Part shown: positions 17,901 through 56,367 of the stretch, piece after piece
Numbering within the stretch: position 1 is the stretch's first letter
How the letters are laid out: each line of letters opens with the position of its first letter
From: a virus
Virus record (IMG/VR): IMGVR_UViG_3300020204_000079
Span: 1-56,367 of that record
DNA length: 56,367 nucleotides
Reading direction: 5' to 3' (one strand)
Made by a program: the position numbers and the translations under genes
Notes under the pieces: generated by a model
Told to the model about the DNA's origin: nothing
Seen by the model: only the letters and a program-made list of their open reading frames with translations
Database searches by the model: none

Positions 17901-18016
17901 TTCTTAGAAATGGAAACTTAATTTTTGGTCAGGCTGATGACATGACTGTTGACATTAAAAATGCCGCATTTCGTCTTGTTTTTCTTAACACCACATTTGG
18001 TTGGAGGATCGTGTAA
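14993..18016 (+). CDS. Tail fibre/spike with six carbohydrate-binding-like repeats and a beta-helix
   Basis: 1007 residues. Residues ~12-325 hold six tandem ~50-residue modules of the W-x(5-6)-Y-x-x-x-D-x-V-x-Y-G-x-x-x-Y ... W type, resembling ChiC/CBM5-12 carbohydrate-binding domains. Residues ~355-560 begin Y-V-A-P-H-G and look like the pectate-lyase right-handed beta-helix start seen in phage spikes. The C terminus has repeated A-V-K-T-Y-V-D / A-A-K-T-Y-I-D elements common in trimeric fibres. Likely the main glycan-binding receptor protein; no catalytic residues can be named. Confidence 0.82.
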   Translation: MTQLIDLGKLRFHFAGDWSATTQYELNDIVKYGGNVYVYTYALKRIGDLPTDTNYWALMVEGIKFKGAFSTSIAYKVGDGVAHGGKVYIAIKDGTGFTPPNATYWSQFADGIQYEGVYSNTAQYQRNDIVSYGSSGYIALQDTSGNLPTNTTFWAKLIEGISASGAWNPATAYVPNDLVAYGANQYKSVSNNTNQLPIDSAGTLNSAHWILLTESIRNRGAWDTGVEYYINDVVFHGGTSYICVVRHASTDFETNLVTNVYWTKYNSGIRWRGAWAATTVYFRDDVVKDAVGSAYIATSGHTAGANFQTDYTTGKWQQFVVGGTDIYPPILATDTGQSLTVKDDGASFDWIGATQSINVFYVAPHGVDQVHSGKNLSAPFASIKYACSQAPAGSTIFVKTGTYLEQLPIVVPVNVAIVGDNQRTVIVQPATGLSDDGVTPNNESTMFRMSNGSILNKMTFVGMTGWVAGTTTEDITTSTIKGVVVGFNPASPVTTKSPYVLECSAICTGAIGALVDGTIHSTGAKSMIFHGYTVISDNGVGYWVKDGGKAEIVSCFTYYCYFGYASTGGGHIRALNGNNSYGTWGAISRGFDVTESPVTGTLVGRVLPFTYTGGTINVGDTVTSDGGATAIVTNVQYSGDKVYVKDITGTFVTNQTLTFSGGGTGTVKSSVEDQKGFVLVATGFSALPKPGASISLADDTYSYVVQSTTGTWTSSASEITLLLAQEKPTGSAAGTAVVIRYKYSQIRLTGHDFLSIGTGGFTTTNYPGTPTQPAAQGNETDEAFPGRVYYVSTDQDGNFRVGEYFRIDQATGKATLNASAFDLSGLSSLRLGSIGAQLGETINEFSSDATLSGNSNTAVPTEYAVKTYVDNKSGSGSGGLLSTDSTLQTGGSVKAPTVTAAKTYIDDAIASSEKNWSIKTAAYTVVSGDRLALDTTSAAFNVTLPANPGAGDYVEFLDAAGKFDVNKPTILRNGNLIFGQADDMTVDIKNAAFRLVFLNTTFGWRIV

Positions 18017-31800: not shown

Positions 31801-34800
31801 GTGTCTTACTCATTCGTAGACAGCATCACGAATCCTGGCGGTTCTAGCGAGGCTACTGCTAGACGGGCAGAAGCTATTAGGGATCGCATTGAAGACCAAG
31901 ATCGCGCTCGCATGGGCGGATATAACTTTGTCGACAACATCTCTGAAATTCAACAGCCACAGGCATTGCTGCGCGCGTCAGCAATACCAAATGACGTTGA
32001 ACAACCCCAAGAGGTAAAGACTCGCAATCCATTTAAGCAAGTTATCCCCAGGTCGCAAGAGGTTGTCGGCAACTTGGCAGAGGGTTACACCCGAGTGGCT
32101 AAGCCGTTCGGTGTTATTGATCAGACCATCAGTAAGGCATCGCCATTCCTGGGCAGCTTAAACTTGTTGCGCCGCACTATGCAGGGGCAAGAGGGGCTGG
32201 AGCAAGAAAAGCGCGGCTTAGATGAGCTACAAGCTTGGGCGCAAACACAAAAGGACGTAACCAAAGATGTTGGTTATGCCCCAACAAAGCAGCTTGGTGA
32301 CCTCGCAACCAACCCGCTAAATGTTGTACCGTTCGTTGCTGAGCGCGTTATTACCTCACTGCCTGACATGGCGGCTGCGGTCGTTGCGCCAAAGGCATAC
32401 ATTGCGGCACGAACCAATGAACTGCTGAACGAGCGCCTAAAGAACGACAACAAAACGCTGGAACAGGCAACTTTTGCCGATGTGGCGGCTGCTGCTACTG
32501 GCGCTGTCATAGAAACTACGCTGGAGCGGTTTGCCACAAAGAGCTTGCTTAAAGGCGGCGTGGGACAGGGTTCATCAGTTGGTGGGCGCATTGGTAGAGC
32601 AACCGCGCTCCAGTCTGGGACCGAGGGTCTTGAAGAAGGCGCAGCCAATCTTGCGGCAACCCTAGGGACAGAGCGGGGTGTCGACCTCAAAGAGCTTGGC
32701 GCTCAAATGCTTGAGGGCGCTATTGTTGGCGGCGGTCTAGGCGCTACCGTACAAAGCGGTAAAGAGGCTTACGTTAAAGCTACGCCTCAAAAAGACGCCG
32801 ACCGCAGATTCGCTGCTCTTGCGAGCGCGATTGATCAGGATGTCAACCAGACCACATTTGCGCAGTCTGGAATGGATGCCCAGGCGCGAATGGCTCTTGA
32901 CCCCAGTCTGACCCAAGAGCAACGCCGAGAAGTTTCTAATGTGCGTCTTCAAGACCTGGCGGACATTGCTGCTGCGGAGCGGGAAGCAGACGCTTCAGGT
33001 ACTACAACAGCTGTTATTAACAGTCAAACAGGCAATGAACCAGATAAAAATGTTGTGGGTAGCTCACCAGGTGAGCCTATCAACAACTTATCCACGTCCC
33101 CCGCGGCAGTAAACTTATCAACTACTGGGGACGCGGCAACAGATGTGGTTGCCCAGAGCGAGCAGAAATTCCTGGACGACCTGGACTTAGCCAGCCAACA
33201 GCAAAAACAAGCTGTTGAACAGCCCGAAACCCTAGCTGTTGCACTGAACGGTATTGCTGCTGACTTGCAACTTCAACCTAACGAAACGCTGAACGTAACC
33301 GAAGTCACTACCGACAAGCGGTTGAATAAGTTTGCAGAAGCGCTGAGCCAAGCGTTCGGCGTAAACGTACATTGGGTTGATTTTGGCGAACAAGGCATGA
33401 CGACCAGCACTGGTCGCAACCTTGGCGGCTTCAACGGCTATCGCCTGGACAACACGATCCTTGTGTCGCCGAATGCCGACTTTATGGACACGACGTGGCA
33501 TGAGTTAACGCACACGCTTGAAACCAAGTACCCAGAAATCTATGCACGGCTGCGCGACATCATAGTCAGCACTGCTGACCCAGTCGTAAAGCAACGTCTT
33601 TATGACGCACTAAATACCCGTCGCATGCAGGAGGTGGGTCAGCCCATGTCCGCAGCCCAACTTGAGTCTGAGTTGGTCGCTGTGGTTGTTGGACAGCAAT
33701 CAACAGACCCAGCCTTGCTTGGACAGCTGTTTGACAGCTTCCAGGACAAGACCCTGGCTCAGCAGTTCCGCGATGTTCTGACTGAAATCTTAGACCGCTT
33801 GTCCGCGGCGCTGCGTGGTCCTCAGTACATCAAAGACCGCCAGCGTGTTAATCAAGCCAGGGACGCAATCAAGACCGCGTTTGCTGAGTACCAAAAGCGT
33901 GAGGCTGCGAGGGTTGGCGGGACAGCACAAACAGCTGTTGCTACTGGTCAGCAGACGATAGCTGTTGCGACACAGCCCGCAACGCAGACCGTAGCACAGC
34001 CCGCCGCGCCGATTACCCAGACAGCCGCTCCGCCAGTTAAGCCTGAGAAGCAGGGCAAGTTTTCGCGTGAGGAATTGCTTGGTGCGCTGGTCAATGGTGA
34101 TGCGATAAGCGTTACTGATTTGATTGCTCACCCTGACATCTTTGCTGTTTATCAGCAGACCCGCGCTGTACTGCGTCGCGCACCGCCAGTCAAAAAAGTT
34201 TTTGATGACCGTGCGAAAGTCCTTGCTGACCGAGAAGGGATGACTCTTAAAAGCGGTCCAATTAAGAGCTTTGATCGCTCCTTCTCCAAGATTTGGTTCG
34301 ACTACAGCGGCGATCACACCAAGATCGGTGACGTGGTTCGATCAACCCTGGTGGTCAATGACTTGCGTGATTTGCAGGACATGATTAAAGCGACGACCAG
34401 TTTCTTTGATGGCGTAAGCATCAAGCGAAATGGCTGGGACCCAAATGCGCCAGTTCACCCCAGCGGCTACCGCGATGTCTTCTTCAGGGGCGCATCCTTC
34501 CTGAACTTCTCTGTCGAGTTACAGATGAACTTTGCCCCGATGATGGAGGCAAAAGAGATTGCGCATGGTTTCTACAAGATAGAGGATCAACTGCGCCGCG
34601 ACATCCTGAGCCAGGACAAACCCATGTCCCCTGGCGACATCTCAGCGGCTCAAGACCAAATCAGAGAATTGCAGCTTAAACAATTCCAGCTGTATAGCGT
34701 GGCGGCTCAGCGAGTCTTCGACGGGGCGAATGCGCCACGCCAAGCAGCTTCGGTCATAGGTACGCCCTCGGATGTCCAGGTGGACAAGCCGAACGAGCGC

Positions 34801-37800
34801 GGCGCTACCTCGCCGGTGCCCGGGTTGTCGTCCCAAGCCGACAATGTGCCGTCGGGCGCGCGGGTAACTGGTACACCCATAACCTCGAAGAAGGTGGTCC
34901 CTTCCGGGAACGAAGCCGGAATTTCCATATCTTTACCTCCTGTAACAATACCTAATAGTAATATACCACAGCAAGTTGATACTGTGCAAGAGCAGACCGA
35001 CGCTCCCAAAAAGGGTGTTAGTCAGTATTCGCGCTCAACCGTGTTGCTCATGCAGATGTCTGATGCAGATGCTCGACGCGCGATTGGCATGGACGCCAAG
35101 TCTAATAAGGTGCGCGATGTTGGCGCAGCCCTGAACGCCAAGACTCTCAAAGAGGACGGCGAAATTTCTGACAAGAACACCACCGAAGAGGCAATGAAAG
35201 AGATTGCCGACATCCTGGTGGGCGAGATTTCTTATCAACTGGGCACATCCGCAGACACCGGCACGGGCTTAGGCTGGTATTCAGCCAACTACCCCAACGC
35301 AGTTAAGCGATTGGCTCGCGTCTACCCAGAGTTGGACGAAGACGCGGGCGCGCGCAACGTGTTCACCGCCATTGTTGCCATCACCTCTAACGGTGAAAAG
35401 GTCTCGACCAACATCAGCAACGCCCTGAAGATTTACGACGGCTTCCGTGATGGCGGCGCTCTTCAGCCGGTTGGCACTCGCCGTGGCTCGATGAGCGCAA
35501 CCCTTGACCGACTGCAAGCACTGATTGATCAGTTCGGCATGGACGGTTTCAGCGACCATCTGTTGGAAGAGCTTACCGTTGGTCAAATCAACGCAAGCCT
35601 GCGAGCAGCCGGGAAGAAAGCTAACTCTAGCTACACAGCAGACACGGTGATGCCACGAGCCGCACTGTACTTTGGTCCCAAGCTGGGGGCTTTCTATGCC
35701 AACCTCATGGGGTCCGAGGGCTACCTCACTATGGATTTGTGGTGGAGCCGCACATTCAACCGCATTCGTGGGACGCTGATCCCTGAACCTACCAAGTCGA
35801 GTGTTGAGTCTGTTCGACAGCTGTTGGGCTTGCCAGAGAATGTGGACGACGAGGTCGTCGCACTGAGCGCCATCCCGTACCAAGAATCGTACAAGCAGAA
35901 GAAGTACAAGGGCGGTACAGAGCTTGAGAAGAAAGCGAACACACTGGTTAAAACGACGTTCCTTGAACTCAACGAGGCGCCGTTCCGGGCGAGCGACCGT
36001 AGCTTTATGATTGGCACCACGCTGATGGCTCAAGAGAAGCTATCCGATAACGGCGTCAAGCTGACCCTTGCTGACATTCAGGCGGCACTGTGGTACTACG
36101 AGAAACGGCTTTACGCGAAACTGACCGGAAGGAAAACAGATGACATCGGATACGAAGAAGCAATCATCGCCGCAGCAGAGGGTGATCGACCCCAGCGATC
36201 CCCTGCACGATTTAATCGAGGGGGAACTGGCGGGACTGTCGGGACAACAGTCGGTCGAGATGTTGCAACAGATGTTCCCGTCAACCAGCCAGAAGCCAGA
36301 ACCGAACCAACAGAAGTAGAAACTGTTGGACAGTACAGCCGACCGCTGGTGCTTGATGCCATCAACGGCAAGGCAACCGCGCCTGACCTGTTCATCATCA
36401 ACGAGAACCCCCGTGTTCTGACAGCTGTTGGTGCGCCGGAGGAGCCGCTTGTTATTAGCAAGCGCACGGTGATGAAAGTGTCTAATCCAGAGGGCGCTGG
36501 CAAATTCACCGAAGACTTCCGCGGCTACAACTCTGCTGGCTTCCAGGTGCAGCGCGCCAAGCGCATTGCCCTGACTGTTGATGAGTTGCGTTCAGTGCCT
36601 CGAATGATCGGCAATCCTGTTGCAATCATCAAGGTGATGCCTAACGCACAGCTAAACCGCCGTGAGTCGTACAAAGTGGTTCTCGACATGGTGAAAGAAG
36701 GCAACCCTGTTATCGCCATCGTCCAGCCTGGTGTGCCGCAGCGCAGTAAAGAAACTGGCGTCACCATGCGAGCCAGCGAGATCGCCTCGATCTACCCCGT
36801 AAACCAAGAGTCGTCGCTGCGTGAGACCAACAGCGAGATTGCTGCTCAACAGCTGTTGTACTTCAACAAAGGTAAAGCTACCGTCCTGGCAAGCAAAATT
36901 GGAAGCAAGCTTTCTGCACTAACAAGCGGGGCAACTGGTCTGCGCAGCAAGAAGCCCGGTGACTTCCGAAGCCTGGAGTATGACCTCCACCCGAAGAGCA
37001 ACTTCAGCCGCAGCATGGCGGAGGATATAGCGCTTCAGGAAGAGTTCTTGATAGAGCGAGCCAAAGAGTCTGGCTTTGAAAATGTAGACGCCTGGATCGA
37101 CGCTGACTACAACGGGTTTGTTAAGTCTGCTGCTGAGTGGCGCTCGCAAAATCCTGTCAACGAAGGATTCTTCTCTCGCCGCGTCGCATTGCAAGGCAAC
37201 AAGTTCACCCTACCGGCGCGCACGGTTCGTGAGAAGTATCTTGAGAACCTGTTTCAGAACCGCATGTCCAGGGTGGAAGACATCCAACAGGCTGTTCAAC
37301 AGCAGGGTGGAACGCTCGACATCAAGGACAGCGCAGGCAATGTACTTGGCAGCACAGACATTACGGCTGCTTCTCAGCGGATGCGGGGTGCTGTTCGTGG
37401 TCGTTTAGATCGATTCAAGAAAGAGGTCGAGATTCCACTGATTGAGGACGCAGCTAAGGCTGGCGTTGACTTGGATGAAGCCGCTCAGTACCTCTACGCC
37501 ATGTATGCACCAGAGCGCAACCTGATCATTCAGACTAGGAACCCCTCACAGTTCCCAACTGACGGTGGCTCGGGTATGACTAACGCAGAAGCAGCAAAGA
37601 TTGTTGCTGACTTCCGTAAGCGCGCGGACTTCCCCGTGTTCCAAGCGATTGCTAAGCGATTCCAGGACATCACCAATATGACCCAGAGTATCTTGGTGAA
37701 TGAAGGCTTGGTTGACGCAGCGACCGTGAATCAGTGGAAGGCTGAGAATCCAAACTATGTACCTCTGCGAGGCTTTGAGAGCGTGGACGAAGAGACTGGC

Positions 37801-39984
37801 AGCAGTTTGGGTGTCGGCTCTCCTGGTCGATTAGACCCACGCAATCCGTTTGTCCGTATCGCTAAGGGTCGTGAGTCCAGGGCTGGCAACATCGTTGAGA
37901 ACATCCTCAAGGACTACACCGACGCCGTTGTTGTCGCCGAAAAGAACAAGGTCTACCGATTGTTGGGACAGTTTGTCCGCGACAACCCAGACCGCAATCT
38001 CTGGGAAATCAACGCGCCATCAATCAAGCGTTCGTACATTCGCAACCAGCTGCAATCACCGCTCGGTTTTATAAGCGGCGAGGTGCGCATTGCTTTTGAG
38101 ACCAATCAGAACCCGAACGAAACCATCGCCTATCGCGTCAAAGGTCGCCCAGTATTCATTAAGGTTGCAGACCCAGGCATGCTAGATGACCTGAAGATGA
38201 CTGGCGCAATCGGTAGCGGCGATCAGGCGAAGCTGTACTTCAGGGTTTGGGCTGGCGCAATGTCTACACTAGCGAAGGTTCGTACTACTCTGTCCCCTGC
38301 ATTCGTTGCGATTGACGCGGTTAGAAACGCAGAGACCGGCGGGTTCTACAACCTTGTTAAGTACGGTCCATCGCAAGCCATCAAAGCTTATGGAAGACTG
38401 TATCAGGCGGCGCGAGTTGCTTGGAAAGCTGAGCGTGACAACAACTGGACCGGAAGTGCCAACCAGACAGTCACAATCAACCCCCCTGGTCAGCCTTCAC
38501 AAACCTTGACGCTCAAGCAGCTGTACGACATGTATCGTGCAGACGGCGGCAAGGTTGGATACCTGGACATCAAAGAGATCGAAGACATCCAGAAGGATAT
38601 TCAGACTCGATTCAAGGCTGCTCAAGTTGCTGGCTCTTTGAACCCAAAGACATACCTGACCCAAAGCCTGAACGCCCTCAGTAAGGTTGAAGACCTAATG
38701 CTGGATGCGGCTGGCTCAATTGAATCAGCGATGCGCTTTGCAACATACATGACTCGCCTCGAAGCTGGCGCAAACAGAATGGATGCGACCAACGCAGCCA
38801 AGAATGTAACCGTCAACTTTGACGCAAAGGGCAAGTGGACTCCGTACCTGGGGCTAGGGTACATGTTCGCTAACGCCAATATCCAGGGCGCAAAGCAAAC
38901 CACCAGCATCGTCTTTAAGTCTGGCAAGGCTGGCGCAGCCGTGGGCGGTGGGTTAATCGCCCTGGGCTACGGTCTTGCTCAACTTGGTGCGCTGTCGCTG
39001 GGTGATGATGATCAGCCGTATTGGGATAAAGAGGTTTATCGTCAAAGCAAGTTCAAGAGCTTGGTGTTCTTTGATGCGATAGGCAATTCGACAACCGTTC
39101 CGATGGCATACGGTCTGGGCTTTTTTGTAAACATGGGCTACGCACTGAGCGACTTGCAGCGCGGAGTTCCGCTGGCGAAGGTCGGTGCGTTTTTGCGAGA
39201 CAGTTTCTTTACTCACTTCTCGCCGTTTGGTTCAATGGAAAACCTGGCTACGTTCTTCTCACCAACGCTGCTTGATCCGATTGCAGTAGTTGCCATGAAC
39301 AAGACTGAACAGGGCTTACCGTTGATGCCTGACTCAGCCTACGATAAAGGCAAACCCGACAGCGAAAAGTTCTGGACTTCAACTCGCGGCACGATGTTCC
39401 AACAGCTGTCGCAGTACCTGAACGAAGCCACCGGCGGAACTCAGGGCATGAGCGGAGCCGTTGATGTCAGCCCAGAAACCATGCGTTATTGGGTTGGCTG
39501 GTTCACCGGCGGTGTGGGTGGCGCAATCCGAGATGCGGCGGAAAGCATTTATTTAACATCAGAGATTGGCGCTGATGCTGCTTTCGAGAAGAACAAGGTG
39601 CCGATCCTCAAGGCGTTCTACCAATCCAACACCGGCAAGGCTGATCAGATCGAGTTCTATCGGAACGCTGAGAAGGCGGAGCGCGCGATCAATGAATGGA
39701 AGCTCTTGTACGGTACAGAGCAAGCGAAGAAGCCAGAGGTTGCTGACCGACTTCGTGAAGAGCGCAAGCTACAGGCACTTGGCGCTGCTGTTGATGACTA
39801 CAAGAAAGCTTTGTCTGGTTTGCGCAGACAAGAAGTTGATGTAATTGACAAGCGCACCTCTGGTCGATACGACGCAGCTGAAGCCGAAGCCAAGCTAAAG
39901 AACATCGCCGAGGACAAGGCAAGACTGTACAAGCGCTTTAACAAAGCCTTTTACAAAGCTGACCCCAACACACCCGGCAACTAA
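31801..39984 (+). CDS. Large polyvalent protein (multi-domain, probably injected)
   Basis: 2727 residues from GTG 31801, the largest gene (about 15% of the genome). Order: Ala-rich helical region (~1-500); metallopeptidase-like H-E-L-T-H at 567-571; RelA/SpoT-like nucleotidyltransferase region (~793-936) with Asp844, Arg847, G-Y-R at 889-891 and V-E-L-Q at 905-908; disordered linker (~980-1070); a long helical domain (~1080-1460) resembling DUF7178 of phage polyvalent proteins; a MuF_C-like domain (~1515-1670) with N-P-R-V-L-T-A-V-G-A; a helical part; and an LPD38-like C-terminal domain (~2240-2450). F/Y-S-R tripeptides occur at 754, 1076, 1512 and 1735 near domain boundaries. Such proteins are thought to travel in the virion and act on the new host early. 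Confidence 0.88.
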   Translation: MSYSFVDSITNPGGSSEATARRAEAIRDRIEDQDRARMGGYNFVDNISEIQQPQALLRASAIPNDVEQPQEVKTRNPFKQVIPRSQEVVGNLAEGYTRVAKPFGVIDQTISKASPFLGSLNLLRRTMQGQEGLEQEKRGLDELQAWAQTQKDVTKDVGYAPTKQLGDLATNPLNVVPFVAERVITSLPDMAAAVVAPKAYIAARTNELLNERLKNDNKTLEQATFADVAAAATGAVIETTLERFATKSLLKGGVGQGSSVGGRIGRATALQSGTEGLEEGAANLAATLGTERGVDLKELGAQMLEGAIVGGGLGATVQSGKEAYVKATPQKDADRRFAALASAIDQDVNQTTFAQSGMDAQARMALDPSLTQEQRREVSNVRLQDLADIAAAEREADASGTTTAVINSQTGNEPDKNVVGSSPGEPINNLSTSPAAVNLSTTGDAATDVVAQSEQKFLDDLDLASQQQKQAVEQPETLAVALNGIAADLQLQPNETLNVTEVTTDKRLNKFAEALSQAFGVNVHWVDFGEQGMTTSTGRNLGGFNGYRLDNTILVSPNADFMDTTWHELTHTLETKYPEIYARLRDIIVSTADPVVKQRLYDALNTRRMQEVGQPMSAAQLESELVAVVVGQQSTDPALLGQLFDSFQDKTLAQQFRDVLTEILDRLSAALRGPQYIKDRQRVNQARDAIKTAFAEYQKREAARVGGTAQTAVATGQQTIAVATQPATQTVAQPAAPITQTAAPPVKPEKQGKFSREELLGALVNGDAISVTDLIAHPDIFAVYQQTRAVLRRAPPVKKVFDDRAKVLADREGMTLKSGPIKSFDRSFSKIWFDYSGDHTKIGDVVRSTLVVNDLRDLQDMIKATTSFFDGVSIKRNGWDPNAPVHPSGYRDVFFRGASFLNFSVELQMNFAPMMEAKEIAHGFYKIEDQLRRDILSQDKPMSPGDISAAQDQIRELQLKQFQLYSVAAQRVFDGANAPRQAASVIGTPSDVQVDKPNERGATSPVPGLSSQADNVPSGARVTGTPITSKKVVPSGNEAGISISLPPVTIPNSNIPQQVDTVQEQTDAPKKGVSQYSRSTVLLMQMSDADARRAIGMDAKSNKVRDVGAALNAKTLKEDGEISDKNTTEEAMKEIADILVGEISYQLGTSADTGTGLGWYSANYPNAVKRLARVYPELDEDAGARNVFTAIVAITSNGEKVSTNISNALKIYDGFRDGGALQPVGTRRGSMSATLDRLQALIDQFGMDGFSDHLLEELTVGQINASLRAAGKKANSSYTADTVMPRAALYFGPKLGAFYANLMGSEGYLTMDLWWSRTFNRIRGTLIPEPTKSSVESVRQLLGLPENVDDEVVALSAIPYQESYKQKKYKGGTELEKKANTLVKTTFLELNEAPFRASDRSFMIGTTLMAQEKLSDNGVKLTLADIQAALWYYEKRLYAKLTGRKTDDIGYEEAIIAAAEGDRPQRSPARFNRGGTGGTVGTTVGRDVATDVPVNQPEARTEPTEVETVGQYSRPLVLDAINGKATAPDLFIINENPRVLTAVGAPEEPLVISKRTVMKVSNPEGAGKFTEDFRGYNSAGFQVQRAKRIALTVDELRSVPRMIGNPVAIIKVMPNAQLNRRESYKVVLDMVKEGNPVIAIVQPGVPQRSKETGVTMRASEIASIYPVNQESSLRETNSEIAAQQLLYFNKGKATVLASKIGSKLSALTSGATGLRSKKPGDFRSLEYDLHPKSNFSRSMAEDIALQEEFLIERAKESGFENVDAWIDADYNGFVKSAAEWRSQNPVNEGFFSRRVALQGNKFTLPARTVREKYLENLFQNRMSRVEDIQQAVQQQGGTLDIKDSAGNVLGSTDITAASQRMRGAVRGRLDRFKKEVEIPLIEDAAKAGVDLDEAAQYLYAMYAPERNLIIQTRNPSQFPTDGGSGMTNAEAAKIVADFRKRADFPVFQAIAKRFQDITNMTQSILVNEGLVDAATVNQWKAENPNYVPLRGFESVDEETGSSLGVGSPGRLDPRNPFVRIAKGRESRAGNIVENILKDYTDAVVVAEKNKVYRLLGQFVRDNPDRNLWEINAPSIKRSYIRNQLQSPLGFISGEVRIAFETNQNPNETIAYRVKGRPVFIKVADPGMLDDLKMTGAIGSGDQAKLYFRVWAGAMSTLAKVRTTLSPAFVAIDAVRNAETGGFYNLVKYGPSQAIKAYGRLYQAARVAWKAERDNNWTGSANQTVTINPPGQPSQTLTLKQLYDMYRADGGKVGYLDIKEIEDIQKDIQTRFKAAQVAGSLNPKTYLTQSLNALSKVEDLMLDAAGSIESAMRFATYMTRLEAGANRMDATNAAKNVTVNFDAKGKWTPYLGLGYMFANANIQGAKQTTSIVFKSGKAGAAVGGGLIALGYGLAQLGALSLGDDDQPYWDKEVYRQSKFKSLVFFDAIGNSTTVPMAYGLGFFVNMGYALSDLQRGVPLAKVGAFLRDSFFTHFSPFGSMENLATFFSPTLLDPIAVVAMNKTEQGLPLMPDSAYDKGKPDSEKFWTSTRGTMFQQLSQYLNEATGGTQGMSGAVDVSPETMRYWVGWFTGGVGGAIRDAAESIYLTSEIGADAAFEKNKVPILKAFYQSNTGKADQIEFYRNAEKAERAINEWKLLYGTEQAKKPEVADRLREERKLQALGAAVDDYKKALSGLRRQEVDVIDKRTSGRYDAAEAEAKLKNIAEDKARLYKRFNKAFYKADPNTPGN

Positions 39985-40053: not shown

Positions 40054-40098
40054 CTGTCACGCCGGGGGTCGCGGGTTCGAGTCCCGTCCACTCCGCCA
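40054..40098 (+). other. attP core: 3' half of tRNA-Asp(GTC)
   Basis: 45 bases run from the anticodon loop (C-T-G-T-C-A-C-G-C) through variable loop, T-arm (G-C-G-G-G-T-T-C-G-A-G) and acceptor strand to G-CCA, as in bacterial tRNA-Asp. The 5' half is absent, so it is not a tRNA gene. Placed 46 bases from the end of the integrase gene, it is what an attachment core looks like: integration would restore the host tRNA. The host tRNA-Asp should end C-C-A-C-T-C-C-G-CCA. Confidence 0.9.
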
Positions 40099-40105
40099 AC
40101 TTCTC

Positions 40106-40143: not shown

Positions 40144-41169
40144 TTACTGTGGGTTAGAAGCGCCCACGTTCCCCACATTTTGCGCACAGCCACCCACAGC
40201 TGTTGGCATGCTGTTGTTGGCGTACTGTCTGGAGCCTTCAGCCGACAGGTGAGCGTACCTGTTGACCATCTCCAGGGTTTGCCAACCGCCCAGCGCCTTG
40301 AGTGTGAGCAGCGGTGTGCCGTTCATGGCGTGATAGCTGGCGAAGGTGTGACGGAGGTCGTGCCACCTGAAGTTAGAGATGCCAGCCCTGCCCAGTGCTT
40401 TCTTCCAGGCTGCTGTGTTTGTGTTCTGTACTGGGTAGCCGCAGTATGTGAACACATGTGTAGCGCTTTGGTTTCTTTCACCTTCAAGAATCTGGATCGC
40501 TCTATCCCCTAGAGGGATGCCGTGATTTCGACCCGACTTGTACTCAGTCGATTCAATCCACAGCAAACGACGCTGCATGTCAACCCGGTCCCACCGAAGT
40601 CCAGTCACATTGGACATCCGAAGACCTGTCAATACGCTGAACTCAGCCATCACCCGCAAGTGGTGCGGCAGTTCACGCATCAACCTGGACAGTTCATCCT
40701 CAGATAGAAACCGCAGACGCGCTTTGGGCGCGGGGTAGGTCTTCATCTTGACGGGCGACACATCCATCCATCCCCATTCGACCGACTTATTAAAGAGCGC
40801 CTTCACGAACTTTAGGTAGTGGTTTGCATTTGAGTCCGTAGTCTCAATACGCTTTTGCTCCACTGCCTTGCGAACATCGCCATCAGTGATCGTCGAGAAC
40901 ACTCGACCAGACCAGTGCTGATCAAGCCATCGCGCAATCGATACGTCACGGTCCAGCGACCGCTTGTCTGTGCGCTCAGCAAACCACCGCTTAGTGGCGT
41001 CGTCCCAAGTTAGAGGTTTGGCTTGACCCCTTGTGATTTCAGCCAAACGTCTGTCGTGGTACGCCTTTGCTGTTAACTGGTTACCAGACCCAGTTGATTC
41101 ACGATGTCTGGTGCCATCTGGACCGCGCACTTCAATCCAGTAAATGCTGCCGCGCTTGTAAATACTCAT
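40144..41169 (-). CDS. int: Tyrosine-recombinase integrase
   Basis: 341 residues, start ATG at 41169. A short N-terminal arm-binding-like segment, a SAM-like core-binding domain (about 53-145) and the catalytic domain with Arg184 (T-G-L-R), Lys211, His270 and Arg273 (H-D-L-R-H), Trp296 in place of the second His (G-G-W) and nucleophile Tyr305 (R-Y-A-H-L). All key residues are present, so it should be active. It catalyses integration at tRNA-Asp via the adjacent attP. No excisionase was recognised. Confidence 0.96.
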   Translation of the reverse strand: MSIYKRGSIYWIEVRGPDGTRHRESTGSGNQLTAKAYHDRRLAEITRGQAKPLTWDDATKRWFAERTDKRSLDRDVSIARWLDQHWSGRVFSTITDGDVRKAVEQKRIETTDSNANHYLKFVKALFNKSVEWGWMDVSPVKMKTYPAPKARLRFLSEDELSRLMRELPHHLRVMAEFSVLTGLRMSNVTGLRWDRVDMQRRLLWIESTEYKSGRNHGIPLGDRAIQILEGERNQSATHVFTYCGYPVQNTNTAAWKKALGRAGISNFRWHDLRHTFASYHAMNGTPLLTLKALGGWQTLEMVNRYAHLSAEGSRQYANNSMPTAVGGCAQNVGNVGASNPQ

Positions 41170-48840: not shown

Positions 48841-49210
48841 TTGCGTGAGTCTTAAACTACCATACCCACCATCGGTCAACGTGTACTGGCGCAAGCGCGG
48901 GAACATAACTTATCTCAGCAAGAAAGGGCGACAGTTCAAAACAGCTGTTGCTGAATACGTTAGCGAACACAACGTGCGCAAATTCGGATCGAAAGCTGTC
49001 GAGGTCTGCATCATTCTGAACCCTCGCAGTCGATCCGGGTTTATGGACATCGACAACTGTTGCAAAGCTGTTCTTGACAGCTGTCAGGACGCTGGCGTGT
49101 TCGATGATGACAACCAGGTCGTCCGGCTAGTGGTGGAGCGCGGCGTTTACACAAAGGGTGGCGCTTGTCTGGTGTTTGTCAATGAAAGGACAAATCATGG
49201 CGAGCAATGA
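48833..49210 (+). CDS. rusA: RusA-like Holliday junction resolvase
   Basis: 125 residues from GTG 48833 with AGGTAGG upstream (TTG 48827 is an alternative). P-Y-P-P-S-V-N-x-Y-W near the start and M-D-I-D-N-C-C-K-A-x-L-D ... G-V-F-D-D-D-N-Q-V carry the conserved Asp residues that bind metal in RusA. It resolves branched recombination intermediates before packaging. Confidence 0.93.
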   Translation: MTNCVSLKLPYPPSVNVYWRKRGNITYLSKKGRQFKTAVAEYVSEHNVRKFGSKAVEVCIILNPRSRSGFMDIDNCCKAVLDSCQDAGVFDDDNQVVRLVVERGVYTKGGACLVFVNERTNHGEQ

Positions 49211-49766
49211 GCGAATCGGACGCGCACTGAACAGTAATAATCTGCGACAGGATGAGTTGCACTCTGACGTTGATGTCATCGCGGCTCTTGCTTTTGCGTC
49301 TAGGCTTGGTTCTTCGCTTCAATCTTTAAAGTCTGGCGGTCACCTGAACCAACTACCTGACAGCGTTTATCTGCTGTCGCTGGCTTTGATCCGAAGTGGT
49401 AGACGTAAGCGAATAGGCATAAGCCGCGACAAGGCAGAGATCGTTTCTCGGCAAGCCTTGCTTGAATGGTTGATTCAAATTTGCCGCAGTTGCAATGGCA
49501 CTGGGCACAGGCTGAGCGACTATACGGTCAAGCCCATAAGGCATCTGAGAAAAAAGAACAGTGATGATATGTGTCCGCACTGCAATGGGACCGGAAAATT
49601 TATGCCGACCTGGGCTTGGCGCAGACAAATGATGAGTTTGGATGGCGAAGAGTCAAAGGCTTGGTGGGAAAAAAGAATTGAGTTCGCAAAAGAAATCGCA
49701 GACGACGCTTACCACGGCGCTAAACGCAAAGTGACGGTCCAGTTAACAGATTTGCTCAGCCCATAA
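49197..49766 (+). CDS. Q-like antitermination protein
   Basis: 189 residues from ATG 49197 behind GAAAGGAC. Two C-x2-C-x-G-T-G half-sites (C-R-S-C-N-G-T-G and C-P-H-C-N-G-T-G) form the DnaJ-type zinc finger of phage antiterminator Q proteins; an N-terminal helical domain precedes it. It is the last gene of the rightward early operon, as in lambdoid phages. Its target would be the late promoter upstream of 56116. Confidence 0.72.
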   Translation: MASNERIGRALNSNNLRQDELHSDVDVIAALAFASRLGSSLQSLKSGGHLNQLPDSVYLLSLALIRSGRRKRIGISRDKAEIVSRQALLEWLIQICRSCNGTGHRLSDYTVKPIRHLRKKNSDDMCPHCNGTGKFMPTWAWRRQMMSLDGEESKAWWEKRIEFAKEIADDAYHGAKRKVTVQLTDLLSP

Positions 49767-49771
49767 TAGGG

Positions 49772-49820
49772 AAAGCCCCCATAGCAACAAATGTGAGACA
49801 AGTGTTGCTACAGGGGCTTT
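49772..49820. terminator. Long hairpin between converging operons
   Basis: AAAGCCCC and GGGGCTTT form the base of the stem, and AGCAACA/TGTTGCT the upper part, with a 12-13-base loop. It lies 6 bases after the Q-like gene and before the leftward island ending at 49931. The rest of the gap to 49930 shows no gene; the hairpin may terminate both directions, though no long T-run follows. Confidence 0.6.
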
Positions 49821-49930: not shown

Positions 49931-50539
49931 TTACTGTTTGACAGAACTAGTGTATGCATAGTGTGCAACTAGAGGGTTGGCAGCATACAGGTCAAACAGC
50001 TTCTCAAGCATCCACAACCCTTGCCAGTGGCAGTTGTGGCGATCCACAGTGAGCGCGGTACGCTGTTCAACCAGCCTCTGGTAGTACCGCTTCTGCCTTT
50101 CGGCAGACCACGTTGTGGCATTCGGAAGGTCGCGCATGTTGACGACGATGTCAGCCAGCTTTATCAACCTGGAGTGAATATCCAGCTTTGGCAAAGCTTC
50201 AAGCATAAGCTCCCTGCGGTTGGGCGCATTCGGGAACGTCACCTTCTTGACCTGAGCCGCGATCTCCGGACAGGTCAGGTCGGCAATCTCGGATAACGTC
50301 AACGACGTGTCCTCGACTGTGTCGTGCAGCCAAGCGGCTGCAACTGTTTCAAATCTGCCGCCGCAAGTTGTGACTAACTGCGCGACCGCTCGCGGGTGTT
50401 CGATGTACGGCGTTTTGCCGTCGCCTCTCGTCGTCCCAGAGTGTGCCGCGGTGGCTAACTCGATTGCCCGTGGAATGTAGCAATTTTCGTAGATTTCGAT
50501 TTTTTGGGGACTGGGATTCACACTTGGTGGACGGATCAT
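49931..50539 (-). CDS. SpoT/MESH1-like HD hydrolase
   Basis: 202 residues, ATG 50539 with GGAGCAACAGC upstream. A-A-H-S-G (His33), Y-I-E-H-P (His48), H-D-T-V-E-D-T (72-78) and I-K-L-A-D-I-V-V-N-M-R follow the HD pattern of (p)ppGpp hydrolases, with all metal ligands present. No synthetase, TGS or ACT domain, so it is a small alarmone hydrolase type. It would lower host (p)ppGpp (or related nucleotides). It terminates the leftward island. Confidence 0.87.
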   Translation of the reverse strand: MIRPPSVNPSPQKIEIYENCYIPRAIELATAAHSGTTRGDGKTPYIEHPRAVAQLVTTCGGRFETVAAAWLHDTVEDTSLTLSEIADLTCPEIAAQVKKVTFPNAPNRRELMLEALPKLDIHSRLIKLADIVVNMRDLPNATTWSAERQKRYYQRLVEQRTALTVDRHNCHWQGLWMLEKLFDLYAANPLVAHYAYTSSVKQ

Positions 50540-50595: not shown

Positions 50596-50609
50596 TGAAC
50601 AGCTGTTCA
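50596..50609. repeat. 14-base palindrome, RACAGCTGTY class
   Basis: TGAACAGCTGTTCA, the longest perfect copy of the repeated palindrome and the only one clearly at an intergenic boundary of the leftward island. Confidence 0.7.
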
Positions 50610-50834
50610 TATCAACCCCCCGCCGCAATGAAAGTTCAGAAACTTTAGAACATCTGTTTTGTTTAATTTAATTTGATATTCTTTAATGTGCGGTGGCCGA
50701 ATACCATCCTCACCTAATTCTTCCCATTGTTTTGTGAAGTGCGTTAGATATTGTTGTGCTTCCCGTTTATTTGAAAGCCAAACAATTGTTTCGGTTTCTA
50801 AATAATGATAATAAGTAACTTTATAAATATTCAT
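50607..50834 (-). CDS. Small hypothetical protein, 75 aa
   Basis: 75 residues from ATG 50834 with a strong AAAGGAGAACG site; the longer frame to 50978 is not used. K-V-T-Y-Y-H-Y-L-E-T-E-T-I-V-W-L and a helical basic end; A+T-rich compared with its neighbours, suggesting separate acquisition. Unrecognised. Confidence 0.7.
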   Translation of the reverse strand: MNIYKVTYYHYLETETIVWLSNKREAQQYLTHFTKQWEELGEDGIRPPHIKEYQIKLNKTDVLKFLNFHCGGGLI

Positions 50835-50974
50835 TTTCGTTCTCCTTTCACCGTCTGCTGTGGGACGCGCCCGATTGCCCAGGCATAGGCTGCCTAGTAC
50901 CTCTGACCAAACCGCTTGTTGTAGTTGGTGTAGAACGCGATGATGAAGTCCTCGACCTTGTTGGTGTCGAGGGT
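50835..50974 (-). other. Gap with a startless coding-like fragment
   Basis: Directly after the TGA of the upstream gene, the same frame continues open for 26 codons (…V-E-D-F-I-I-A-F-Y-T-N-Y-N-K-R-F-G…) and stops. It looks like a genuine protein end but has no start codon; removing one A at the upstream ATGAA would supply one. It may be a frameshifted small gene. The rest of the gap holds the next gene's ribosome site. Confidence 0.35.
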
Positions 50975-51418
50975 TCATGCTGTTGCTCCTTGTTGTGTTG
51001 CATCGCGCAATAGCTCCGACGTGGTCGGCTCGTGCATCCCTGTGAACCTGACTGGCGCGGCTCTGAACATCTCGTCATTGATTTGCTGGCACAACTCCAG
51101 CCAAAGGCACTCGATACCGCTCAATTGCTCAAGTACTGCCGCAGAAAACCGGCTTTTCACCCCATCTAACGGAACGGCGTGGCGCTCTTTTCGCTCTTGA
51201 ATTGCCCGGTTGATGACCTGAACAAACCTTTTCCACTGCTCGCTGGTGAACGCGCCATCTCGAGCGACCGCCCCAAGTACCCGCCGGTCGATTATTGAGA
51301 CTGTTAGGTCGGTCTCAAGCATAAGCATAGACACGGTGTCCCGCAGTTTTTGGCGAGCGAGCGAGTCAAAGCTGCTGTCTTGACTCAGCACGAATGTGCT
51401 TTTGATTTCGACTTTCAT
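50975..51418 (-). CDS. Hypothetical protein, 147 aa
   Basis: 147 residues from ATG 51418 behind AGGAGAAGCG. Mixed alpha/beta with a helical C-terminal half; no motif recognised. Member of the leftward island. Confidence 0.66.
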   Translation of the reverse strand: MKVEIKSTFVLSQDSSFDSLARQKLRDTVSMLMLETDLTVSIIDRRVLGAVARDGAFTSEQWKRFVQVINRAIQERKERHAVPLDGVKSRFSAAVLEQLSGIECLWLELCQQINDEMFRAAPVRFTGMHEPTTSELLRDATQQGATA

Positions 51419-51440
51419 TTCGCTTCTCCTGTTGATTAAA

Positions 51441-51683
51441 TCAAACCTTGGCTGGATCAGCTTCCAAGCCGAACAGTTCAAAGTACTTCTCGGGGCTGAC
51501 TTTGGTCACCCTTACACATTCCTCACCGCCAAGCCGCATGCTCCGACAATGGTCGGGGTAGCACATGTCAGCGATTTCCCAGGCGCGCTTGGCGCTGGTG
51601 TAGCTGTAGGGTTTGCCGGTGGTTGGGCGAAGGACGACCCAGTCGTCGTCCAGGGTTTTGATGTGGATGATGAATAGTTCCAT
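51441..51683 (-). CDS. Small hypothetical protein, 80 aa
   Basis: 80 residues from ATG 51683 with AAGGAGC upstream. F-I-I-H-I-K-T-L-D-D-D-W-V-V-L-R-P and R-A-W-E-I-A-D-M-C-Y. No known family. Confidence 0.7.
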   Translation of the reverse strand: MELFIIHIKTLDDDWVVLRPTTGKPYSYTSAKRAWEIADMCYPDHCRSMRLGGEECVRVTKVSPEKYFELFGLEADPAKV

Positions 51684-51719: not shown

Positions 51720-53789
51720 TTACATGACACGGCGCGTGTCGCGCTGTTCCAGCTGTTTGATTACTGTTTTCAGCGAAGACTTGTGCATGTCGTCCAGCGT
51801 GACCGGGCAACCGACTGCGTAGGCTTGCGAGAATTGCCAAGCGTTGGTGTATATGCCAAAGCCGACGACATCGACGCCGTACAACTTGTAGGCAGCGCTG
51901 GTAAGCTGCTGCATAGAGTTGATTTCGCCGAACCCGTCCGTAATGACCACTACTACCTTGCGCTGGTGGGGCATGGCGGACAGCTGTTCGCAGGCTGTTT
52001 TGACGCCCTGGTAGTCCGGTGTTCCGTAGTTCGGCAGCCGCTTCATAAGGTCGAAGTGGTGCGGAACATTGGCGCATTTGTCAGCAAAGCGCTTAGCAAC
52101 TACCAGGGTGCAGTTGCCGCTGTCCATCATGGTGGAATGGTAGACGCCAGCCAAGTCAGTGTTTGTACCGCCACCCATGCCGTACCGTGCGTTTTGGAAG
52201 CCGACAACTTCAACGTCAGCACCCGACGCCTCGCAAGCTGTTGCAACAGCCCAGCCAAGATCAACAGCGCTGTTGATGGACGAACCTTTCATCGAGGCAG
52301 ACAGGTCGATGACAACCGAGACCGCAGTATCGATGCCATCGGCAAACCACCGGCGCTTGAACACTTGCTCGGAGCCAGCCAACATGCGGGGCGCGCGCTT
52401 GCCGTCGAAGCGACCGCCCATCGCGCCACCGTCCCAGCCGCAGCGCTCCGGAGCGTTAAGAATCCGGAACAGCTGAGCCTTGAGGGCGGGGAGCGAGGAG
52501 CCGTTTAGCTTTTTAAGCTTGTTGCGCACGGTGCGCTCGGTTACATCCTGCAACTGCGACCACTTGCGCATGTCACTGCGCATTGCGGGAGCGATGGCGG
52601 GAAGGTTGATGGCACCCTTGGTGCGCTGGGCAATACCCTGGAAGACATCGTCCACGTTTGGCTCGGGGGCAATGACCGCCTCCTCGCTAAAGGTGTCCGA
52701 CTCAGGGGCGATGAACGGGTCGCCGACCTCGGTGCCGCCGGTTTCATCAGCACCATCGTCGGCGTCACCGGCGCTGTCGAAGAGCGTGTCGCCCGACTCG
52801 GGTGCAGCCTCGGCGTTGGCAGAAGCTTCCTCAGACAGTGCGTCAGCCTCAGCCTGGGCAGCAGCTTTGGCAGCAGCGTCGGGGTCGTCATCACCGAAGT
52901 TGTCATTGGCATCGTCCTCCGCGAAACGCGAGGGGGGATTCCAATGCCCGCTAGGTCCATCGGTGTCGGTGTCAGCATCAGCATCAGCATCAGCACCAGC
53001 ACCGAATAAGTCGTCGTCGGCAGCGTCCTGCGGCTCGGCGTCGTCGCCTTGCTGCTGGGGCATTGACTGCGGACCCTGAAGCTTGGTGAACGTATCGGGG
53101 AACTGCTGTTTCCAGCTGTCCACAAACTGTTCGGCGATCACCAGGGCACCAGCGCTGCCCTTGCGATCAAGCGGCAGGAGCTTGACTGCGTCGGCTGCTG
53201 CTGCATACAGCGCGCGGTGCGGTTCAGGGATGCGCCCCAGAAGCTGCTTAGCAAAACCGTTACCGTCACCCATTGCAGCGCGGCAAACCAGCGCCAGAGC
53301 GAAGGGTGCCGAGTTGATGCTGCAAGGGTTGAATTCGCCGTCAGCAATGATTTTGCTGGTGAACTTGCTCATCAACTTTTTGAACATCGAACGGGCACCG
53401 CGAGCCTTGCCGCTGGTAATGACCGCATGCTCGATCCGGGCGTCCTCGATGCCGTTCCAGCAGTGGTGAATCAGCGCACCCTTGTGGCGCGTCACGCCAG
53501 ACTGGGTGTAGGCGACGTGCCCGAGTTCATGCAGCGTATAGGCGCTGATGAAGTCCGCCTCCTGGCGGTTGATCATGGCGTTGTCAGGCAGCGCTGGGTA
53601 GTTGATCCGGAAGGAATTGACCCAGTCGGTGTCGGTGTTGTTCACGCTCCACGATGCAAACGCCACGTCACCCTCGAAAGTGGCGACGCCGGTGCCGACC
53701 TTGAAGCGAAAGCCAAGGTTTGCCAACTGCTTGTTGGCGTGGGAGAGGGCGGCAGCTTTGACGCGCGCCCCTTGTATGCGGTTTGTCAT
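51720..53789 (-). CDS. CobT-like metalloprotein with VWA domain
   Basis: 689 residues. N-terminal metallopeptidase-like region with H-E-L-G-H at 87-91 and N-G-I-E-D-A-R-I-E soon after (third ligand), then an acidic, Asp/Ala-rich linker (about 260-390), then a VWA domain (from about 485) with MIDAS D-L-S-A-S. This order matches CobT, the VWA subunit of cobaltochelatase, and MoxR-partner proteins. The AAA+ partner is encoded 11 bases upstream in the same operon. The chelatase catalytic subunit CobN is absent, so metal insertion into a tetrapyrrole is unlikely without a host CobN; a chaperone or remodelling role is more general. Confidence 0.85.
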   Translation of the reverse strand: MTNRIQGARVKAAALSHANKQLANLGFRFKVGTGVATFEGDVAFASWSVNNTDTDWVNSFRINYPALPDNAMINRQEADFISAYTLHELGHVAYTQSGVTRHKGALIHHCWNGIEDARIEHAVITSGKARGARSMFKKLMSKFTSKIIADGEFNPCSINSAPFALALVCRAAMGDGNGFAKQLLGRIPEPHRALYAAAADAVKLLPLDRKGSAGALVIAEQFVDSWKQQFPDTFTKLQGPQSMPQQQGDDAEPQDAADDDLFGAGADADADADTDTDGPSGHWNPPSRFAEDDANDNFGDDDPDAAAKAAAQAEADALSEEASANAEAAPESGDTLFDSAGDADDGADETGGTEVGDPFIAPESDTFSEEAVIAPEPNVDDVFQGIAQRTKGAINLPAIAPAMRSDMRKWSQLQDVTERTVRNKLKKLNGSSLPALKAQLFRILNAPERCGWDGGAMGGRFDGKRAPRMLAGSEQVFKRRWFADGIDTAVSVVIDLSASMKGSSINSAVDLGWAVATACEASGADVEVVGFQNARYGMGGGTNTDLAGVYHSTMMDSGNCTLVVAKRFADKCANVPHHFDLMKRLPNYGTPDYQGVKTACEQLSAMPHQRKVVVVITDGFGEINSMQQLTSAAYKLYGVDVVGFGIYTNAWQFSQAYAVGCPVTLDDMHKSSLKTVIKQLEQRDTRRVM

Positions 53790-53800
53790 GCGTTGTCCTT

Positions 53801-55021
53801 TCAGGCAGCAACTTCCATTTCACTGTCGCTGGTCGTAATTGCCAGCACGGGGTCGAAACTCACTAGTGCAGTGCCCAGTGCAGCGCGCAGCGCGTCGTCG
53901 GAGACGTTGGCTTTCCAAAGCTGTTGAAGAACCTCGGCTGACTCGGGAGACGCACGGTTGACCATTGTTTCCTCGAAGGCACCCCGGAAGTCCTGACCAT
54001 CAGTCAGCGCCTCGGCGAGGTAGAACGCCTCGCGCAGCGTTGGGATATGGTCAAGCTGGGCAGAATCACCGGCTTGGCGGCAGACGGTCAGGAAGGCGAC
54101 GATTACCTCAGCGAGCGGCAGCTTGACGCCAGCGCGCATCGAGATGACCTTGGCTTCCATTTCAGGCTTGAGGTAGCTGAAGTTCAGCGTTTTAGCGAAG
54201 CGGTTGACGAAGGCGACGTTTTGCTCACGCACCCCGACGTACATGCCGGTGAAATCACCGCGACCGTTAGAGTTGTCAGCAGCCATGAACACGACGCCGG
54301 GAGCCTTGCGGATCACCTGTCCGGTTTCGGGAATGGTGACCACGCCTTCAGGTTCCAGCGGAGCGTGGAGCGCCGACAAGTACTCAGGACGGGCAAAGCT
54401 GACCTCATCGAGCAGGATGATTGCACCCGGGCGCTGCATGCCGCGTAGGATGACGCCTTGCTGGTAGACCGTGCTGCCGTTTTTGACGCGCTCACCGCCA
54501 ATGAATTCGTAACGCTCAGCACCGGAGTCGAAGCTGACCCGGATAAAGGCGCGACCAAGACCGGCGGCGACGTTTTTGACAAACTCGGTTTTGCCGGTGC
54601 CAGCGGGACCAGCCAGCCAGACGTTGCGTCCGCGCTTAATGGCAACGACAGCGGAAAACAGCAGTTCGGCGTCGAACTTGTACATCGGGTCAAGTATCGG
54701 GGCGGCGGGGTCGTTCCAGACCTCGACCTCGGTGCCAGCGTATTTGCCGCGGATGCCAAACACCTGACCCAGGGTGGCGGTTTTGACAACAGCAACGTCA
54801 GGCTGTTCGACCGGCTGTTCAACAGCAGCGGGGGCAGCAGCGCCCCAGACGCCAGCGATCAGACCGACCTGGGGAAGCGCAGCAGCCACAACCTCACCGG
54901 GCAGCGCAGAGACAGCGGCGACCATTTCCTCCTTGGAGGCACGGGCGAGATCGCGTCCTTTGCCGGTTACCCGGCGCAGCACGTCATTGAGTTGGGGTTT
55001 GGAGAGTATGTCAAGGTTCAT
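53801..55021 (-). CDS. MoxR/CobS-like AAA+ ATPase
   Basis: 406 residues from ATG 55021 behind AAAGGTAACC. Walker A G-P-A-G-T-G-K-T at 138-145, Walker B I-I-L-L-D-E (Asp205-Glu206) and the sensor region with A-D-N-S-N-G-R-G-D. The N-terminal ~80 residues are an Ala-rich helical extension with an SAP/HeH-like start (L-S-K-P-Q-L-N-D-V-L-R-R-V-T-G-K). CobS-type proteins with CobT-type partners occur in several phages. Function here unknown. Confidence 0.88.
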   Translation of the reverse strand: MNLDILSKPQLNDVLRRVTGKGRDLARASKEEMVAAVSALPGEVVAAALPQVGLIAGVWGAAAPAAVEQPVEQPDVAVVKTATLGQVFGIRGKYAGTEVEVWNDPAAPILDPMYKFDAELLFSAVVAIKRGRNVWLAGPAGTGKTEFVKNVAAGLGRAFIRVSFDSGAERYEFIGGERVKNGSTVYQQGVILRGMQRPGAIILLDEVSFARPEYLSALHAPLEPEGVVTIPETGQVIRKAPGVVFMAADNSNGRGDFTGMYVGVREQNVAFVNRFAKTLNFSYLKPEMEAKVISMRAGVKLPLAEVIVAFLTVCRQAGDSAQLDHIPTLREAFYLAEALTDGQDFRGAFEETMVNRASPESAEVLQQLWKANVSDDALRAALGTALVSFDPVLAITTSDSEMEVAA

Positions 55022-56115: not shown

Positions 56116-56277
56116 ATGAAAAAAGTAATCCCCATGAAGAAGTACGCAGCCGGTGGCGCAGTAGGCAAGTTCAAGCCATGCGCTGCGTGTAAGAACGTCG
56201 CAGCCTGCGCCAAGGCAGGCAAGTGCATGGCGCAAGGCATGAGGCGCGGCGGCATGGTCAAGGGCAAGAAGTGCTGA
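56116..56277 (+). CDS. Small Cys/Lys-rich phage protein, complete copy, 53 aa
   Basis: Complete form of the gene truncated at the left edge: 53 residues from ATG 56116, behind GAAAGGTGAAAAG. First gene of the late operon once the ends are joined. Basic with five cysteines (C-A-A-C, then C-A, then K-C-M, and a terminal Cys). Function unknown. Confidence 0.72.
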   Translation: MKKVIPMKKYAAGGAVGKFKPCAACKNVAACAKAGKCMAQGMRRGGMVKGKKC

Positions 56278-56367
56278 GTCATGGCTAAGGCTAAGTCCAC
56301 GGTCAACAGCGCCGGGAACTACACCAAACCCGGCATGCGTAAGGCGCTGTTCGAGTCCATCAAGGGC
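56127..56367. repeat. Right copy of the terminal overlap
   Basis: Matches bases 1-241 with three synonymous differences. It includes bases 56281-56367, the first 29 codons of the gene annotated at 155-337. Confidence 0.93.

What the first reader, a model, noticed from the sequence alone, without database searches (positions are those of the whole stretch)
49931..50539. SpoT-type hydrolase as possible counterpart of the polyvalent-protein RelA domain
The phage encodes a complete HD alarmone hydrolase on the opposite strand from the RelA-like domain. Together they may adjust or neutralise an alarmone signal, for example as a toxin and antidote split between virion and early gene, or the hydrolase may simply blunt host (p)ppGpp defence such as toxSAS-type abortive infection.
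Basis: inference. Interest (0 to 1): 0.66.

Follow-up and report, generated by a model that had tools for sequence, protein, structure and literature searches.

The report
Phage alarmone hydrolase paired with toxin-like domain
A temperate phage carries a small enzyme predicted to destroy a bacterial alarm nucleotide, and across related phages this enzyme comes and goes together with a toxin-like domain of a giant phage protein predicted to make such a nucleotide, so the two look like a poison and its antidote kept in separate parts of the genome.

Summary
The ORF at 49931-50539 (-) is real: a complete 202-aa HD alarmone hydrolase with all metal and catalytic residues. It is not SpoT but a stand-alone small alarmone hydrolase (SAH) nearest MESH1 (Z 19.9). 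The 'RelA-like' domain of the 2727-aa polyvalent protein (34060-34734, +) is also real; its nearest solved relative is Tas1/Apk1, the (p)ppApp-making T6SS toxin (E 1e-7; Z 13.3). The proposed pairing gains support. Related phages whose polyvalent protein keeps this domain (window, G002, G004, G012) all have an SAH at the same locus; those lacking it (G011; G015/G018/G021; G020; G023; G024) have none. A relative carries a Zeta-like kinase in the same slot. An unrelated 113-kb phage has a similar domain in a portal-like protein about 0.4 kb from an SAH. Yet only 1 of 39 other SAH phages has such a domain, so SAHs have other uses too. Phage (p)ppApp synthetase plus hydrolase is already known (MuF-Apk2/Aph1). 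New here are the polyvalent-protein context, the distant opposite-strand antidote, the MESH1-type hydrolase and an unusual acceptor motif (GYRDVxF). Activity, substrate, delivery and interaction remain untested.

The parts
49931..50539 (-). small alarmone hydrolase (SAH), 202 aa, MESH1-type HD fold
31801..39984 (+). 2727-aa polyvalent protein
   Evidence: LPD38 (residues 2418-2600) and MuF_C (1589-1694) Pfam hits above cut-off; homologues in related phages
34060..34734 (+). Tas1-like alarmone synthetase domain (residues 754-978) of the polyvalent protein
   Evidence: PDB phmmer Tas1 E 1e-7; model pLDDT 84.5, Tas1 Z 13.3; conserved motifs
33499..33513 (+). HELTH zincin metallopeptidase motif just upstream of the synthetase domain
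   Evidence: motif conserved in most homologues
49773..49820 (-). hairpin between the convergent SAH and zinc-finger genes, probable terminator
   Evidence: RNA fold -31.4 kcal/mol, z -7.2
51720..53789 (-). CobT-like vWA protein, anchor gene on one side of the SAH locus
   Evidence: PHROG 1576 and 17276; conserved position in relatives
49158..49766 (+). zinc-finger, antiterminator-Q-like protein, anchor gene on the other side of the SAH locus
   Evidence: weak PHROG 6060/127 and DnaJ_CXXCXGXG matches; conserved position in relatives

Best explanation
The gene encodes a metal-dependent small alarmone hydrolase that removes the 3'-pyrophosphate from a hyperphosphorylated nucleotide, probably (p)ppApp and possibly (p)ppGpp or a pyrophosphorylated RNA end. 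It serves as the trans-acting antidote to the phage's own Tas1-like synthetase domain in the giant polyvalent protein. Likely scheme: the polyvalent protein is made late or carried in by the virion; its synthetase domain burns ATP to make the modified nucleotide and depress the host or a rival; the hydrolase, made from a separate leftward operon, recycles the product so that the phage-producing or lysogenic cell is not poisoned. Shown here: both genes exist with intact active-site residues, both are under purifying selection in relatives, and they are present or absent together in this lineage. Inferred: catalytic activity, substrate, virion delivery, timing, and that this domain is the functional partner of the SAH.
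For: SAH identity and intact active site. Tas1-like synthetase domain with catalytic Asp and Glu and the Apk-type RxT at syn2. Both present in window, G002, G004, G012; both absent in G011, G015/G018/G021, G020, G023, G024. In the terminase tree the positive records fall in two places, each next to double-negative lineages, so at least two joint changes. Independent linkage in G056, about 0.4 kb apart, and MT835636, about 0.3 kb apart. Only 1 of 39 other SAH phages has the domain. Purifying selection: dN/dS about 0.11 for SAH and 0.05 for the domain between G002 and G004. Precedent: Apk2 with Aph1 in prophages (PMC12226406).
Against: Few independent lineages (3 positive, 5 negative), not corrected for relatedness; three of the negatives (G020, G023, G024) lack the anchor genes of the locus. 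SAH lies 10 kb away in another operon, not next to the toxin as in known modules. The SAH is not an Aph1, and the domain's syn3 motif is DxF, not the GxN of adenosine kinases. A MuF-Apk2-like gene in L261/L262 has no HD_4 partner. Aph1-type hydrolases rescue only partially. No biochemistry.
Confidence: 0.58

Rival explanations
1. Counter-defence: the SAH blunts host alarmone or toxSAS/CapRel abortive infection by hydrolysing (p)ppGpp, (p)ppApp or the pyrophosphate put on tRNA, independently of the phage's own domain.
For: Phage SAHs are common without any such synthetase: 158 phage records match and 38 of 39 SAH phages lack the domain. The SSU5 phage SAH PaSpo reverses the tRNA modification made by FaRel2 (PMC11559606).
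Against: Does not predict the joint presence and absence with the polyvalent domain, nor the linkage in G056 and MT835636.
Confidence: 0.25
2. Host physiology: the SAH lowers basal (p)ppGpp to keep transcription and replication running or to bias lysis-lysogeny, and the co-occurrence with the domain is shared ancestry or chance.
For: MESH1 and Rel HD relatives act on (p)ppGpp (PMC7644958); the SAHs of this phage group form one clade, and the sample is small.
Against: Two joint changes on the terminase tree and independent pairings in other phages.
Confidence: 0.12
3. The protein acts on another nucleotide such as NADPH or PAPS rather than on an alarmone.
For: The best structural matches are human MESH1, solved in complex with NADPH and with PAPS.
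Against: The full Rel/SAH HD motif set is conserved and the gene co-varies with an alarmone-synthetase domain.
Confidence: 0.05

Closest known systems
MuF-Apk2 / IapK / Aph1 prophage toxin-immunity modules (S. pneumoniae, M. haemolytica, P. multocida, B. caccae)
   Same: A phage virion-type protein carries an Apk/Tas1-type synthetase domain, and the phage also encodes an HD hydrolase.
   Different: Here the domain is internal to an LPD38 polyvalent protein instead of C-terminal to MuF; the hydrolase is 10 kb away on the other strand, lies outside the Aph1 clade and nearer MESH1; no IapK-like gene was found.
Tas1/Apk1 T6SS effector
   Same: Nearest solved relative of the domain (E 1e-7, Z 13.3); catalytic residues and syn2 RxT shared.
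   Different: Syn3 is GYRDVxF instead of GYSGVN; different carrier protein; Tas1 is neutralised by a binding immunity protein.
MESH1 and bacterial small alarmone hydrolases (PaSAH, RelH)
   Same: Single HD domain, the same fold and active-site residues (Z 18-20).
   Different: Phage-encoded; lineage-specific R-[GA]-D-G-x-TPYI and VTFP motifs; specificity unknown.
RelA/SpoT domains in phage polyvalent proteins (Iyer et al. 2017, PMC5512222)
   Same: RelA/SpoT-fold domain inside a multidomain phage polyvalent protein, proposed to trigger an alarmone-like response.
   Different: The passages read describe no hydrolase partner; the co-inherited SAH and the Tas1 affinity are the added elements.
toxSAS-antitoxin operons and phage SAH PaSpo of SSU5
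   Same: SAHs can neutralise toxic synthetases enzymatically.
   Different: toxSAS pairs are two-gene operons; PaSpo is a counter to host toxins with no partner described in the text read.

Membership tests
Small alarmone hydrolase (SAH) | Stand-alone HD domain of the Rel/SpoT type | tested here: met
   202 aa, HD_4 only, MESH1 best in sequence and fold
Small alarmone hydrolase (SAH) | Conserved metal and catalytic residues (H, HD, ED, D, N) | tested here: met
   H33/H48, H72-D73, E76-D77, D130, N134 invariant
Small alarmone hydrolase (SAH) | Mn-dependent 3'-pyrophosphohydrolysis of an alarmone | not testable with these tools
   needs an enzyme assay
SpoT / long RSH | HD plus synthetase plus TGS/ACT domains in one chain | tested here: not met
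   only HD in a 202-aa chain
Aph1 (p)ppApp hydrolase | Groups with characterised Aph1 proteins | tested here: not met
   window/G002/G012 clade (100/96) lies apart from Aph1 of Mannheimia and Pasteurella
Aph1 (p)ppApp hydrolase | Gene next to the apk2 toxin gene | tested here: not met
   10 kb away, other strand
Aph1 (p)ppApp hydrolase | Specific for (p)ppApp | not testable with these tools
   base-specificity residues are not established (PMC7644958)
Apk/Tas1 adenosine 3'-pyrophosphokinases (the polyvalent domain) | Synthetase fold and catalytic Asp/Glu | tested here: met
   Tas1 Z 13.3; D81 and E143 invariant
Apk/Tas1 adenosine 3'-pyrophosphokinases (the polyvalent domain) | Adenosine-type signatures at syn2 (RxT), syn3 (GxN) and syn4 | tested here: inconclusive
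   RST at syn2 fits; DVF at syn3 does not; MN at syn4 is Tas1-like but not Apk2-like
Apk2 (MuF polymorphic toxin) | N-terminal MuF domain with C-terminal synthetase | tested here: not met
   domain is internal to an LPD38 polyvalent protein; only a separate MuF_C match further downstream
Phage polyvalent protein with RelA/SpoT domain | Very large multidomain phage protein with LPD domains, metallopeptidase and a RelA/SpoT-fold domain | tested here: met
   LPD38, HELTH motif, synthetase fold

The most novel reading that the evidence does not exclude
Polyvalent phage proteins have an exchangeable effector slot (Tas1-like synthetase, Zeta-like kinase or neither), and an effector can travel with a distant, trans-encoded antidote. 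The GYRDVxF synthetases pyrophosphorylate an acceptor other than the usual guanosine or adenosine nucleotides, and a MESH1-type SAH reverses it.
Probability: 0.25. Interest if true: 0.75.

Novelty: new variant of a known kind. Interest (0 to 1): 0.55.

Why it matters
If true, alarmone poison/antidote pairs are not limited to MuF toxins and toxSAS operons but also work inside giant polyvalent proteins, with the antidote encoded elsewhere in the genome, where operon-based searches for immunity genes would miss it. It gives a concrete, testable role to the RelA/SpoT domains noted in polyvalent proteins in 2017, and co-variation with a distant gene offers a way to find antidotes for other effector domains in the same slot.

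Tried and rejected
SpoT proper: rejected, single HD domain. Membership in Aph1: not supported by the tree or by adjacency. IapK-type inhibitor in the window: no significant tblastn match, though a diverged one could be missed. Single-sequence searches with the synthetase domain found nothing in viral contigs or annotated phages; the small alignment A1 worked. Two genome-contig scans gave no relative, so no host or prophage was found. Relatives cannot be drawn for a virus record. A near search of the phage collection gave only a tRNA-Asp stretch. A substrate call from the SAH sequence was considered and dropped, because the determinants are not established. A Zeta-type antidote in the SAH locus of G011 was looked for by eye only; nothing recognisable. 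G009 and G025 were dropped from the co-variation count because their contigs do not contain the SAH locus; G013 and G010 because the polyvalent gene is not in the contig; G007 and G022 likewise (SAH seen, polyvalent gene not).

Full report
OBSERVATION. The ORF at 49931-50539 on the minus strand is real: 202 codons from ATG, with a GGAG upstream. It matches HD_4 (E 1e-13, above cut-off), PHROG 990 (E 6e-29) and, in the PDB, MESH1 first (E 1.3e-15), then Rel enzymes. All metal and catalytic residues are invariant in 31 phage homologues. A model built on that alignment (pLDDT 81) matches human MESH1 (Z 19.9), PaSAH (18.3), SpoT (15.8) and the Bacteroides caccae (p)ppApp hydrolase (15.2). It is therefore a small alarmone hydrolase (SAH), not a SpoT.

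GENOME. The window is a virus record of 56,367 bases whose ends overlap by 241 bp at 98.8% identity; a second assembly bridges the ends at 99.9%, so it is essentially a complete circular map. An integrase gene lies next to the 3' part of a tRNA-Asp, which marks it as temperate (inference). SAH is the last gene of a leftward block (AAA, vWA, three small ORFs, SAH), converges on a zinc-finger gene, and is separated from it by a strong hairpin (z -7.2).

THE OTHER HALF. The 'RelA-like' domain of the 2727-aa polyvalent protein is real but is not recognised by Pfam. Its only PDB sequence hit is Tas1, the (p)ppApp synthetase toxin (E 1e-7). A model (pLDDT 84.5) matches Tas1 best (Z 13.3, 27% identity), then other alarmone synthetases. 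The catalytic Asp and Glu and the Apk-type RxT at syn2 are kept. Syn3 is GYRDVxF, neither the GxN of adenosine kinases nor the SxH of guanosine kinases (signatures from PMC12226406), so the acceptor cannot be named from sequence.

CO-VARIATION TEST. Related phages were collected by terminase and their whole records searched for HD_4, the synthetase domain and the polyvalent protein. Polyvalent proteins with the domain occur in the window, G002, G004 and G012, and all four have an SAH between the vWA and zinc-finger anchor genes. Polyvalent proteins without the domain occur in G011, G015/G018/G021 (one lineage), G020, G023 and G024 (the last only a weak polyvalent match); none has an SAH. In G013, G015, G018 and G021 the anchors lie about 160-175 bp apart with nothing between; in G010 and G011 the gap holds other ORFs. 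G020, G023 and G024 lack the anchors, so absence there rests on the whole record. G009 and G025 are uninformative for the SAH because their contigs stop short. Counted as lineages this is 3 positive and 5 negative (Fisher 1/56, about 0.02; my arithmetic, not corrected for relatedness). In the terminase tree G012 sits with double-negative lineages and the window clade with G011, so at least two joint changes are needed. The SAHs of this group form one clade (100/96) outside Aph1. Both genes are under purifying selection between G002 and G004 (dN/dS about 0.11 for SAH, 0.05 for the domain).

INDEPENDENT CASES. In a 113-kb phage (G056, L040) a GYRDV-type domain is part of a 1781-aa portal-like protein whose gene ends about 0.4 kb from an SAH on the other strand, with one ORF between. 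In gut phage MT835636 a Tas1-like ORF is followed after about 0.3 kb by an HD ORF. A 97-kb phage (G005) has both, far apart. Against this, a MuF-fused Apk2-like domain in L261/L262 has no HD_4 partner in its record. Conversely only 1 of 39 SAH phages from other lineages has a Tas1-like domain, so phage SAHs clearly have other uses.

EFFECTOR SLOT. Between conserved anchors of the polyvalent protein, where the window has the synthetase domain, G011 carries a Zeta-toxin-like kinase (E 1.6e-10), and G009 carries a visibly related sequence (by eye). The slot thus looks exchangeable, and the SAH follows one cassette. A HELTH zincin motif lies just N-terminal in most homologues.

MECHANISM. Best-supported reading: the synthetase domain makes a toxic hyperphosphorylated nucleotide in the infected or rival cell, and the SAH hydrolyses it in the cell that makes phage or carries the prophage. 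This follows the logic of Apk2 and Aph1, where hydrolases protect interchangeably though only partially (PMC12226406), and of SSU5 PaSpo, which reverses FaRel2 (PMC11559606). RelA/SpoT domains in polyvalent proteins were described in 2017 (PMC5512222); the passages read there name no hydrolase partner. Activity, substrate, virion packaging and expression timing are inferred, not shown.

VERDICT. The toxin/antidote interpretation moves from speculation to a supported but untested hypothesis; counter-defence remains the main rival. Membership: SAH yes; SpoT no; Aph1 no by clade and gene position, specificity untested; the domain is Tas1/Apk-like with an open acceptor.

Noticed in passing
1-241 and 56127-56367: Near-identical ends (98.8%) and a second assembly that bridges them: the record is a complete circular map although it is classed without end repeats.
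   Followed up: yes
40054-40102 and 40144-41169: 3' part of a tRNA-Asp next to a phage integrase gene, a probable attachment site; the polyvalent gene ends just before it.
   Followed up: partly
L254 (G011 polyvalent protein, residues about 1029-1106); G009 polyvalent protein, residues about 890-1140: A Zeta-toxin-like P-loop kinase occupies the slot that holds the Tas1-like domain in the window: an exchangeable effector slot in polyvalent proteins.
   Followed up: partly
L040:10951-16296 (-): A 1781-aa portal-like protein carries a Nudix-like stretch, a GYRDV-type Tas1-like domain and a C-terminal extension, with an SAH gene 0.4 kb away.
   Followed up: partly
L262:8873-10531 (+): A MuF-like head protein with a C-terminal Apk2-like domain but no HD_4 hydrolase in its 55-kb record: a counter-example to strict pairing.
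   Followed up: partly
51720-55021 (-): Conserved AAA (MoxR/CobS-like) plus vWA (CobT-like) gene pair of unknown role in these phages, flanking the SAH locus.
   Followed up: no
50607-51683 (-): Three small ORFs between SAH and the vWA gene have no family match and are poorly conserved in relatives; possible further accessory or immunity genes.
   Followed up: no
14993-18016 (+): 1007-aa protein, probably tail-associated, with a CBM_5_12 (chitin-binding type) module.
   Followed up: no
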